Origin: a virus
IMG/VR virus record: IMGVR_UViG_3300044633_000091
Coordinates: 1 to 23,781 of that record
Reading direction: 5' to 3' (one strand)
DNA length: 23,781 bases
Under the pieces are notes generated by a model, which was not told the DNA's origin, searched no databases, and was given only the letters and a program-made list of their open reading frames with translations. The number at the start of each line of letters is the position of its first letter. Positions within the stretch are counted from its first letter, which is position 1. The translations under genes were made by a program, and so were the position numbers. Of the stretch, positions 19,876 through 23,781 are shown piece after piece.

Positions 19876-21420
19876 TTAGGCTAAAAGTATCTTTTGTGCT
19901 ACTCCGTTAATTATTACATTCCAAACTTTACTTGATGCGTTTACTTCTACGTTTACTGCACCCGCGTTATATGTAGCATCGCCTACTACAAATTGATTAT
20001 TACCCGTTGCAGTTGCATTTATACCTAAAATTATACAACTATCATAATTAGCCGATTGGGTATTACGCCCAATAGCAGTATTATAAGAACCCGTTGTATG
20101 ATTTGATAAAGCAAGATAACCAAACGCAGTATTATAAGCACCCGTTGTATTGCTCGTTAACGCTTGTAATCCTACTGCGGTACATTGAAATCCCGTTGTG
20201 TTGGCTTTTAACGATTGATACCCTATCGCAGTTATACCCGTTCCACTCGTATTAGTAAACCCTGCCTCATAACCTACGGCAACGTTGTTGTCGGCGGTGT
20301 TGTTTAATAAACTATTTGTACCTACTGAAGTGTTAGAATTACCCGTTGAATTTGATAACAAAGAACCTCTACCAACTGCCGTATTACTTGTTCCGTTATT
20401 GGAAACTAACGAAAATAATCCAACTGCGGTATTATCTCCGCCTGTTATATTAGAACTTAATGCTTGATAACCTAATGCCGTGTTATTTGTTCCCGTTGTG
20501 TTCAAACGCAACGCTTGATAAACGATTGCAGTTAAACCTACCGCACTCGTATTACTATACCCCGCCTCAAAACCTACTGCGGTATTGTTGGATGCGGTGT
20601 TGTTGTATAAGGCACTACGACCTATTGCGGTTATATTACTTCCGCTTGTATTTGTTAGTCCTGCTTCAAAACCTACTGCGGTGTTACTTGATGCAGTATT
20701 GTTATATAAAGCACTTTGCCCTATTGCAGTATTACTACTTCCTGTTAAGTTTGAAAATAACGATGCTAACCCAATGGCAGTATTACTACTACCTGTTGAG
20801 TTTGTTGATAACGCTAATCCTCCAACTGATGTATTAAATGTTCCACTCGTATTAACAAACAACGCATCCACACCCACACCCACGTTGTAACTTCCGCTTG
20901 TGTTGGCTCGTAACGAACGATAACCCAATGCGGTGTTATTGCTATTGGTGTTGTTTTCAAGTGATAAATACCCTACGCCTGTGTTATTTGTGCCTGTTGA
21001 GTTTAAGCGTAACGCCAAAGCACCCAATCCCGTATTACCTGTGCCTGTACTATTGAATCTATTTGCGTGCTTACCCAGGGCTGTATTAAAGCTACCTGTA
21101 CTATTAGTAAACAAAGCATCATGTCCTATACCGGTATTACTGGCCCCGGTAGTATTGGCTGTTAAAGCTGAATCACCAAAAGCCGCGCTATCTGATCCGG
21201 TAGTATTACTATCTAATGCGCCACCGCCAAAAGCAGTGTTGCTAGTAATTGCACCTGCTCCATAGTTGGTCAAGGCTGTAGTAGATACCAACAGAGGCAG
21301 GTCATTGCCATTACCGTCGGACAAGTATCTTAGCGTACCACTGAGTGGTAAGTTGTCTGAAAGTTTTATCAGAGACGGGTACGTGTTCTGAGGGGTAGTA
21401 TTAAATAAAGAAGTTCCCAT
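19876..21420 (-). CDS. Repeat-rich tail fibre / adhesin (YadA head-like repeats)
   Basis: 514 residues from ATG at 21420. After an N-terminal domain of about 55 residues (including LIKLSDNLPLSGTLRYLSDG, a likely virion attachment segment), residues about 61-461 are built from roughly two dozen units of 15-18 residues with the pattern NTAxGxxALxxNTTGxx. The same motif forms left-handed beta-rolls in trimeric autotransporter heads of the YadA type, so a trimeric fibre shaft is likely. The last 53 residues lack repeats (NNQFVVGDATYNAGAVNVEV, ending VWNVIINGVAQKILLA) and may fold as a trimer tip. There is no autotransporter anchor, so it is not a bacterial adhesin gene but a phage fibre. Probable role: host surface binding. 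Confidence 0.82.
   Translation of the reverse strand: MGTSLFNTTPQNTYPSLIKLSDNLPLSGTLRYLSDGNGNDLPLLVSTTALTNYGAGAITSNTAFGGGALDSNTTGSDSAAFGDSALTANTTGASNTGIGHDALFTNSTGSFNTALGKHANRFNSTGTGNTGLGALALRLNSTGTNNTGVGYLSLENNTNSNNTALGYRSLRANTSGSYNVGVGVDALFVNTSGTFNTSVGGLALSTNSTGSSNTAIGLASLFSNLTGSSNTAIGQSALYNNTASSNTAVGFEAGLTNTSGSNITAIGRSALYNNTASNNTAVGFEAGYSNTSAVGLTAIVYQALRLNTTGTNNTALGYQALSSNITGGDNTAVGLFSLVSNNGTSNTAVGRGSLLSNSTGNSNTSVGTNSLLNNTADNNVAVGYEAGFTNTSGTGITAIGYQSLKANTTGFQCTAVGLQALTSNTTGAYNTAFGYLALSNHTTGSYNTAIGRNTQSANYDSCIILGINATATGNNQFVVGDATYNAGAVNVEVNASSKVWNVIINGVAQKILLA
20038..21240 (-). repeat. In-frame ~51 bp tandem repeat array coding for the fibre shaft
   Basis: About 24 diverged units of 45-54 bp encode the NTAxGxxAL..N..G motif. 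A higher-order block (NNTA.NNTAVGFEAG..NTSG, then TAIG..AL) occurs three times, indicating duplication of multi-unit segments. One unit has Val in place of the conserved Gly (TAIVYQAL). Opposite-strand open frames across this array are by-products of the repeat. Confidence 0.9.
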
Positions 21421-22778: not shown

Positions 22779-23282
22779 ATGAAAGCGCCGCATTACAATT
22801 ACATGAAGTACTGGAGAGTCGTCAGAAGATACGCCTTCCAGAAGTACGACCTAAGCCAACAAGATCTAGACATTCTGTTCTATATCCATGACGAGCATTA
22901 CTTTAGCAATTACCAATTTGAAAAGTTTGAACGCCTGTTCTCATGGAGCCTCATCAGACTCAACAGCCTGACCGAGCGCGGATGGATCAACAAACTTGGC
23001 TCCGGTAACAAGTACGGTAAGCGCGATGTCTATGAAGTGACCATGAAAACACAGCGTGTTGTCACCGGATTGTACAAAATCTTAAATGGAGAAGGCTTCC
23101 CAGACACCAGCCAGCGCATGATGCACCACCGACGTAGGTACATGGACCGCCGCTACCGGAAGTTTATTGGTGATATGGTCGATGAGATCAAAGAGACCAA
23201 GAAGAAGAACGCTGAGTTCAAAGCCGAAGTAGAAAAGCAAAGACTACGCGATGAGCGTATCCGCAAGACTAGAGGACAATAA
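22779..23282 (+). CDS. Winged-helix (MarR-like) DNA-binding protein
   Basis: 167 residues from ATG at 22779, the only plus-strand protein gene. Residues about 8-95 have the order of a MarR-type winged helix: MKYWRVVRRYAFQKYDLSQQ, DLDILFYIHDEHYFSNYQFE, FSWSLIRLNSLTERGWINKL as the recognition helix region, then a Gly/Lys wing (GSGNKYGKRDVYEVT). The C-terminal third is a highly basic helix (RRRYMDRRYRKF and EFKAEVEKQRLRDERIRKTR). Known relatives are transcription regulators; here the divergent, closely packed promoters suggest it may control itself and the late minus-strand unit. The long basic tail is unlike a minimal MarR protein. Its end overlaps the GroES-like gene by 14 nt, tail to tail. 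Confidence 0.65.
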   Translation: MKAPHYNYMKYWRVVRRYAFQKYDLSQQDLDILFYIHDEHYFSNYQFEKFERLFSWSLIRLNSLTERGWINKLGSGNKYGKRDVYEVTMKTQRVVTGLYKILNGEGFPDTSQRMMHHRRRYMDRRYRKFIGDMVDEIKETKKKNAEFKAEVEKQRLRDERIRKTRGQ

Positions 23283-23538
23283 CAACGTCTCTCTCCTGTA
23301 TGATCGTGTACTGATGGTTGTCAATCACCATCGTGAAACTCTGGTTCTTGTCGTAGTGAATCAGATCAGATGGCTTAATTACCGCCACGTCTGTGCCTGA
23401 TGCCACTACCTTCGCCTTCTTATAGCGAAATTCACTCGTGTCTTGGGCTGACAATAGTAGCCCTCCGTCTGTCTTAATCTCCTCCTCAATGTTGGAGATG
23501 ACAATGTACTTGCCTATTGGCTGAAAGGTTTTATTCAT
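23269..23538 (-). CDS. GroES-like co-chaperonin
   Basis: 89 residues from ATG at 23538; an earlier in-frame start would run into the tRNA gene. The protein follows GroES along its length: FQPIGKYIVISNIEEEI for the N-terminal strand, TDGGLLL at the mobile-loop position (SAGGIVL in E. coli GroES), KAKVVASGTD for the core GxVvAvG, and FTMVIDNHQYTIIQERDVVI for the C-terminal evdgeeylilreddIl. Length is close to the 97-residue norm. Phage co-chaperonins such as T4 gp31 replace host GroES so that GroEL can fold the capsid protein; this is the likely role. The hydrophobic LLL tip needed to bind GroEL is kept, unlike in the longer protein at 14765..15328. It is transcribed with the tRNA and RNA just upstream. 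Confidence 0.78.
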   Translation of the reverse strand: MNKTFQPIGKYIVISNIEEEIKTDGGLLLSAQDTSEFRYKKAKVVASGTDVAVIKPSDLIHYDKNQSFTMVIDNHQYTIIQERDVVIVL

Positions 23539-23542
23539 GTTG

Positions 23543-23635
23543 TAGTCAGGACAGGATTCGAACCTGTAAGCTTTTTGCCTTAACAAAGGTATCGGACAGA
23601 GAATCCAAAAGCGTCTACCATTCCGCCACCTGACT
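23543..23635 (-). tRNA. tRNA with long variable arm, identity unclear (best-fit anticodon CUC)
   Basis: The 93 nt minus-strand sequence has acceptor strands AGTCAGG and CCTGACT (7 bp), TG at positions 8-9, a D arm GCG-GAATGGTAGA-CGC of Leu-like type, a T arm ACAGG-TTCGAAT-CCTGT, and a long variable region with a CCTT/AAGG hairpin. The best anticodon stem is TTGGA/TCCGA with loop TTCTCTG, giving CUC, which is a Glu anticodon on a Leu/Ser-type body and has U at position 37. The variable region is long (24 nt). It could be a divergent Leu tRNA, a decayed gene, or misfolded by eye. CCA is not encoded. Confidence 0.7.
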
Positions 23636-23641
23636 ATGTTG

Positions 23642-23781
23642 TGGAGAAGGGGGGCCTCGAACCCCCGTCCAGATAAAGTCGCAATTCGATGTCTTTATTT
23701 ACACGCCTAGTACTGGGCAAGCCCTGCACCGTATTTCAATTCCACCATCTGGCGTAACCAGAAAAACAAATTTTGCCATTT
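23642..23781 (-). ncRNA. 3' part of a structured tRNA-like RNA, possibly tmRNA (5' end beyond right edge)
   Basis: On the minus strand the sequence ends with ATCTGGACGGGGG-TTCGAGG-CCCCCC-TTCTCCA: a T arm of 5 GC pairs and an acceptor strand CTTCTCC. The text TGGACG-GGGGTTCGA before a T arm is typical of the end of tmRNA, where helix 2 abuts the T arm. No partner strand (GGAGAAG) is found within the 140 nt visible, so the 5' end must be further right, which excludes a normal tRNA. Two further stems are visible: ACGCC/GGCGT and ATAAAG/CTTTAT. It lies 6 nt upstream of the tRNA. Without the 5' half, tag frame and pseudoknots, tmRNA is a hypothesis. Confidence 0.45.

What the first reader, a model, noticed from the sequence alone, without database searches (positions are those of the whole stretch)
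23642..23781. Possible phage-encoded tmRNA, 3' end
The visible 140 nt have a T arm and acceptor 3' strand in a TGGACG-GGGGTTCGA context characteristic of tmRNA, and no matching acceptor 5' strand within tRNA distance. Phage tmRNA genes are rare; a phage copy next to a tRNA and a GroES-like gene would form a translation/folding support cluster expressed with late genes.
Basis: partly seen in the sequence, partly recalled or inferred. Interest (0 to 1): 0.6.

Follow-up and report, generated by a model that had tools for sequence, protein, structure and literature searches.

The report
Phage tmRNA beside anticodon-less tRNA-like gene
The end of this phage contig carries the last 143 bases of a real ribosome-rescue RNA (tmRNA) whose relatives encode an unusually long protein tag, and it sits next to a tRNA-shaped gene with no recognisable anticodon that belongs to a large, apparently undescribed family in uncultured phages.

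Summary
In detail: minus-strand 23781-23639 is the 3' part of a tmRNA gene cut by the contig end (Rfam tmRNA, truncated match, E 4e-11). It is 143/143 identical to the 3' part of a complete 336-nt tmRNA in a sister contig. There, and in three more relatives, the full gene scores 77-84 bits (cut-off 47), keeps the G3-U70 pair and encodes a 25-residue tag, GNVELSTMAFEDAMSFVSNEYKVAA. In these relatives the tmRNA and the adjoining tRNA-like gene lie between phage groEL and groES. Two things go beyond an ordinary phage tmRNA. (1) Divergent phage tmRNAs share this long tag at the amino-acid level (L208, L210), and two other long-tag types recur (Callevirus; L201/L217); 29 Bacteroidota ssrA tags have 9-10 residues. 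(2) The neighbouring 'tRNA-Glu(ctc)' does not look like a decoding tRNA. Its acceptor, D and T arms recur almost unchanged around unrelated cores of about 30-140 nt in at least 119 stretches of uncultured-phage contigs (146 copies, 138 distinct cores in 80 fetched pieces), on the strand of nearby tRNAs, with no anticodon stem above chance. Most likely the tmRNA acts in ribosome rescue with host SmpB; the tRNA-like RNA's role is open. Nothing here is shown to be expressed.

The parts
23639..23781 (-). 3' part of phage tmRNA gene (ssrA), cut by the contig end; equals positions 194-336 of the complete gene in L020
   Evidence: Rfam RF00023 truncated match E 4.2e-11; 143/143 identical to L020
23643..23649 (-). 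acceptor 3' strand CUUCUCC; pairs with GGGGAAG beyond the window (G3-U70), discriminator A at 23642, CCA not encoded
23650..23666 (-). T arm GGGGG-UUCGAGG-CCCCC
23683..23691 (-). 3' strand of the long helix 2 (CAUCGAAUU); its 5' strand lies outside the window; one compensatory G-C to A-U change against L208
23710..23729 (-). hairpin GUGCAGGGCUUGCCCAGUAC with one compensatory change against L208
23543..23635 (-). tRNA-like element: constant acceptor, D and T arms, hypervariable core; called tRNA-Glu(ctc) by ARAGORN
23269..23538 (-). phage groES (89 aa), start codon 4 nt after the tRNA-like element
   Evidence: PHROG 3188 E 1.7e-14; Pfam PF00166 E 7.6e-11

Best explanation
The contig end holds the 3' part of a complete, one-piece, phage-encoded tmRNA. 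Shown: sequence and covariance-model match, full-length homologues, G3-U70 acceptor, long-range helix 2 with a compensatory change, and a 25-codon tag frame in the homologues. Inferred from established tmRNA biology: it is charged with alanine by host AlaRS, binds host SmpB (no phage SmpB found), enters ribosomes stalled on broken mRNAs and adds the tag, whose Ala-Ala end should send the product to host ClpXP-type proteases. Its long, conserved tag marks a phage-specific tmRNA lineage, not a recently copied host ssrA. A hairpin, the tmRNA and a tRNA-like RNA form a cassette that in this clade lies between groEL and groES, so ribosome rescue and chaperonin may be made together. The tRNA-like RNA is presumably excised by tRNA-processing enzymes, but does not look like a decoder of codons.
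For: RF00023 truncated match E 4.2e-11. 143/143 identity to a full tmRNA in L020. Full homologues 77-84 bits against cut-off 47, ARAGORN tag GNVELSTMAFEDAMSFVSNEYKVAA. Acceptor and T stem intact, helix 2 and hairpin compensatory changes against L208. groEL-hairpin-tmRNA-tRNA-like-groES order in L004-L007, direct groEL-groES junction (17 nt) in L002/L003. Tag homologues in L208 and L210, with differences concentrated in third codon positions (P 0.03, 0.03, 0.0007; pairs not independent), also L209/Calle 0.01, L201/L217 0.06. Bacteroidota ssrA tags: 9-10 aa, 29 called. No SmpB in 15 related contigs.
Against: The tag frame and 5' half are not in the window itself; they are inferred from a sister contig. 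The model scores are well below those of Bacteroidota ssrA genes (about 147-205 bits among those listed), so loss of some pseudoknots is possible. Overall free energy of the visible part is not below shuffles (z -0.45). No expression data. No promoter was identified; co-transcription with groEL/groES rests on gene order only.
Confidence: 0.85

Rival explanations
1. The sequence is a tmRNA remnant: an attachment-site fragment left by integration into host ssrA, or a decaying copy without function.
For: Phages often integrate at the 3' end of ssrA and carry fragments of it (discussed in PMC9004378). Rfam score is low for a tmRNA.
Against: The gene is full-length in four relatives. Against 395 Bacteroidota genomes only short matches (about 20-50 nt) are found. 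It is 98-99% conserved while groEL is 96% and groES 88-89% identical. Acceptor, T stem and helix 2 are kept with a compensatory change.
Confidence: 0.06
2. The phage tmRNA is a modified inhibitor or redirector of host rescue: it competes with host tmRNA for SmpB and stalled ribosomes, and its long tag gives products a different fate from host-tagged ones.
For: A tmRNA-like domain without a tag frame from mycobacteriophage DS6A has been tied to inhibition of tmRNA (PMC4131195, PMC11915505). Tags are 2-3 times longer than host tags and conserved. The Callevirus tag ends in VAVGV, without Ala-Ala.
Against: The window-clade tag ends in VAA, and L208 and L210 tags end in MAA and LAA, all degron-like. 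No functional data.
Confidence: 0.2
3. The adjoining tRNA-like gene is an ordinary class II or intron-bearing tRNA and nothing more.
For: Acceptor, D and T arms are intact; Rfam tRNA scores 36-45 bits; ARAGORN names an anticodon in the window copy.
Against: Across 70 cores with a D-stem no anticodon stem above shuffles, while 11 ordinary tRNA genes of the same search all show 4-5 pairs. ARAGORN makes no call in 84 of 101 copies and scattered anticodons in the rest. Cores are mostly unrelated in sequence and vary from about 30 to 140 nt.
Confidence: 0.1

Closest known systems
One-piece bacterial tmRNA (ssrA, Rfam RF00023)
   Same: tRNA-like ends with G3-U70, T arm, helix 2, a similar resume region (ATAAAC-GGC in relatives, ATAACT-GGC in host genes), tag ending in Ala-Ala, no encoded CCA as in most Bacteroidota ssrA
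   Different: Phage gene; 25-residue tag instead of 9-10 in 29 Bacteroidota genes; 77-84 bits instead of about 147-205; inside groEL-groES in relatives
tmRNA of Callevirus phages (Calle, phi38:1, phi40:1; Pervagoviridae)
   Same: Phages with a terminase related to the window's (36% identity); one-piece tmRNA at 87 bits; long tag; Calle also carries groEL and groES
   Different: Different tag (about 30 residues, ends VAVGV, no Ala-Ala); located away from groEL; no tRNA-like element annotated next to it
tmRNAs of actinophages (Streptomyces phages Pepperwood/Sushi23 and Faust) and Bacillus phage G
   Same: Phage-encoded one-piece tmRNA
   Different: Short tags (ANSKFAFALAA, ANSKNASAYALAA, AKLNITNNELQVA)
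Phage tRNA-Leu genes
   Same: D arm of the type GUGGCGGAAUUGGUAGACGC, found in the same tRNA clusters
   Different: The element has a nearly constant acceptor AGUCAGG and a hypervariable core in place of anticodon arm and variable arm

Membership tests
tmRNA (RF00023) | Covariance-model match | tested here: met
   Truncated match E 4.2e-11 in the window; 77-84 bits full length in four relatives
tmRNA (RF00023) | Acceptor stem with G3-U70 and T arm | tested here: met
   3' strand in the window, 5' strand in L020/L004/L006/L208; all seven pairs
tmRNA (RF00023) | Long helix 2 joining the 5' and 3' halves | tested here: met
   9 pairs with one compensatory change against L208; duplex energy alone is not exceptional (174 of 2000 shuffles as good)
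tmRNA (RF00023) | Tag frame with resume codon and stop, ending in Ala-Ala | tested here: met
   In homologues only; the frame lies outside the window
tmRNA (RF00023) | Pseudoknots PK1 to PK4 | tested here: inconclusive
   A PK1-type stem and several hairpins are present; pseudoknot partners were not established
tmRNA (RF00023) | Alanylation, SmpB binding, trans-translation | not testable with these tools
   Needs experiments
canonical tRNA (adjacent element) | Acceptor, D and T arms | tested here: met
   Rfam RF00005 45.4 bits; four compensatory acceptor pairs between window and L006 copies (sequences)
canonical tRNA (adjacent element) | Five-pair anticodon stem with seven-base loop | tested here: not met
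   Not above shuffles over the family; controls pass. The window copy alone can form one (UUGGA/UCCGA), but it is not kept in the L006 and L208 copies

The most novel reading that the evidence does not exclude
The window shows a member of an undescribed class of phage RNAs: tRNA-like molecules with constant acceptor, D and T arms and a hypervariable core without an anticodon, spread among many phages in many copies and moved as whole units, here coupled to a phage-specific tmRNA lineage whose long tag is itself under selection.
Probability: 0.45. Interest if true: 0.85.

Novelty: new variant of a known kind. Interest (0 to 1): 0.62.

Why it matters
Why phages keep their own tmRNA is unsettled. 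A lineage with long, conserved, phage-specific tags gives a direct test: the tag can be put on a reporter and its fate compared with the host tag. The location between groEL and groES suggests that ribosome rescue and protein folding are supplied together. The tRNA-like family, if expressed, would be a large new group of phage RNAs that gene finders overlook or misname as tRNAs, and may bear on tRNA-targeting defences.

Tried and rejected
A family search for RF00023 in the window's own record found only a chance hit, apparently because it does not score truncated ends. Panino (Maribacter phage) seemed a match from the literature, but Rfam shows a permuted tmRNA there, so not the same form. A tag-fragment pattern in the genome collection hit two genomes, neither hit in a tmRNA called by ARAGORN. 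The tag peptide was too short for a protein scan. A general closing helix for the tRNA-like cores was tested and is not above shuffles (24 against 18.7 expected at five pairs or more). Cores share no 16-mer with their surroundings, so no nearby antisense target was seen. Literature searches for anticodon-less tRNA-like phage RNAs gave nothing relevant, which is weak evidence of absence.

Full report
Observation. The last 143 bases of the window, read on the minus strand (23781 to 23639), match the Rfam tmRNA model as a 5'-truncated hit with E 4.2e-11. The default scan and ARAGORN report only the neighbouring tRNA, because more than half of the gene lies beyond the contig end. The window is a whole 23,781-base virus record, so extension had to come from relatives.

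Extension through relatives. Scans with the GroES-like protein and the next ORF found close relatives. Four of them carry a complete tmRNA: L004, L005, L006 and L007/L020, with 77-84 bits against a cut-off of 47 and full model coverage. The window's 143 nt are identical to the 3' part of the L020 gene, and the following 93-nt tRNA-like gene is identical too. The acceptor stem is GGGGAAG/CUUCUCC with G3-U70, and CCA is not encoded, as in most Bacteroidota ssrA genes read here. With the more distant homologue L208, helix 2 and one hairpin each show a compensatory change. The tmRNA differs by 1-2% between relatives, while groEL differs by about 4% and groES by 11-12%.

Gene order. In L004-L007 the order is groEL, a hairpin of about ten pairs, tmRNA, tRNA-like gene, groES. 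In L002 and L003, whose GroES is 95% identical, groEL and groES are 17 nt apart with nothing between. Among the phage contigs with a related groEL scanned whole with the tmRNA model, only these four score above its cut-off. L208 carries the same hairpin, tmRNA and tRNA-like gene with no groEL found in its 28-kb contig, so the three elements behave as a cassette.

Phage and host. The terminase is 76% identical to an uncultured podovirus (MW202828) and 36-43% to Flavobacterium elemo and Cellulophaga phages, so the host is probably a Bacteroidota bacterium (inference). The related isolates Calle, phi38:1 and phi40:1 also carry one-piece tmRNAs at 87 bits, and Calle's was reported (PMC8776804). 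Phage tmRNAs as such are known: 402 of 18,146 phage genomes (PMC9004378).

Long tags. The relatives' tag is GNVELSTMAFEDAMSFVSNEYKVAA. A pattern scan of the conserved 3' end found further phage tmRNAs: L208 with GNVEKSNMTFESAIEFVSEYQMAA, L210 (183-kb contig) with AEEISAFTFEDAMAFVGAEEYALAA, L201/L213 and L217 with GNVLDKMATIGLIRENASVVA and GNVLNNMAACGLFREESSVVA, L209/L214 with GKNTNGVVSQGDNAQIEANMNTVFSLLRNEVLAAA; Callevirus reads GNNTNAVNAQIEANMEAVNAILNLEVAVGV. The resume codons of L201/L213/L217, L209/L214 and Callevirus were set by analogy and may shift by a few codons in the same frame (ARAGORN starts the Callevirus tag eight codons later). Differences fall preferentially on third codon positions, as expected for a translated, selected peptide, though single tests are modest and pairs within a group are not independent. 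In 29 Bacteroidota ssrA genes tags have 9-10 residues, and 10 is the commonest length overall (PMC11915505). Other long-tag phage tmRNAs may exist in the literature; I did not find a survey.

The tRNA-like neighbour. ARAGORN names it tRNA-Glu(ctc). In L006 and L208 the corresponding gene keeps acceptor, D and T arms but has an unrelated middle; between window and L006 the acceptor stem differs by four compensatory pairs. With looser ends the 80 fetched pieces hold 146 copies with 138 distinct cores of about 30 to 140 nt, in 115 clusters, up to nine copies in one piece. The constancy of the ends is partly imposed by the query; the diversity of the cores is not. Where another tRNA lies in the same piece, 57 of 57 copies point the same way. 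No anticodon stem above shuffles is found, while ordinary tRNA genes pass the same test. Rfam lists many copies as tRNA and gives no other family for them. The window copy is identical over 98 nt to one in L366, from a 106-kb contig in which the fetched piece shows no other matching flank, which points to transfer of whole elements. A search of the isolate phage collection with the joined ends gave no match covering both ends as one such element, and three literature searches gave nothing.

Mechanism. For the tmRNA the inference from established trans-translation biology is straightforward: host alanyl-tRNA synthetase and host SmpB (no SmpB in 15 related contigs) would load it into stalled ribosomes. 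What the long tag adds is unknown; a longer flexible handle for proteases, or a different fate for tagged products, are both open. For the tRNA-like RNA the options are a decoy for tRNA-cleaving defences, punctuation for RNA processing (groES starts 4 nt after it in the window), or a carrier of variable regulatory sequence. None is tested.

Verdict. The finding is real and correctly read. As a tmRNA it is a new variant of a known kind: phage-specific long-tag lineage, in an unusual place. The neighbouring tRNA-like family is the more surprising part and deserves its own study.

Noticed in passing
window 23543-23635 (-); L364-L443: tRNA-like element with constant ends and hypervariable core, at least 119 stretches of viral contigs, up to nine copies per fetched piece; not a decoding tRNA by the tests done.
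   Followed up: partly
L109 27590-27798 (Maribacter phage Panino, PP540027): The annotated tmRNA is better read as a permuted (two-piece) tmRNA, RF04321 62 bits; none of 198 Bacteroidota genomes has a match.
   Followed up: partly
L179 6451-6812 (Cellulophaga phage Calle): One-piece tmRNA whose tag frame ends in VAVGV, without the Ala-Ala degron.
   Followed up: partly
L020 4351-4390; also L004-L006, L208: A hairpin of about ten pairs directly upstream of the tmRNA, conserved with the cassette; may be a terminator, processing site or mRNA stabiliser.
   Followed up: no
L209, L210, L199, L202, L212 contigs: Five of ten tmRNA-bearing phage contigs from the pattern scan also encode GroEL, but no tmRNA was called within about 3-4 kb of groEL there.
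   Followed up: partly
window 19876-21420 (-): A 514-aa protein built of repeats of the type NTAxGxxAL with no Pfam match, probably a fibre-like repeat protein.
   Followed up: no
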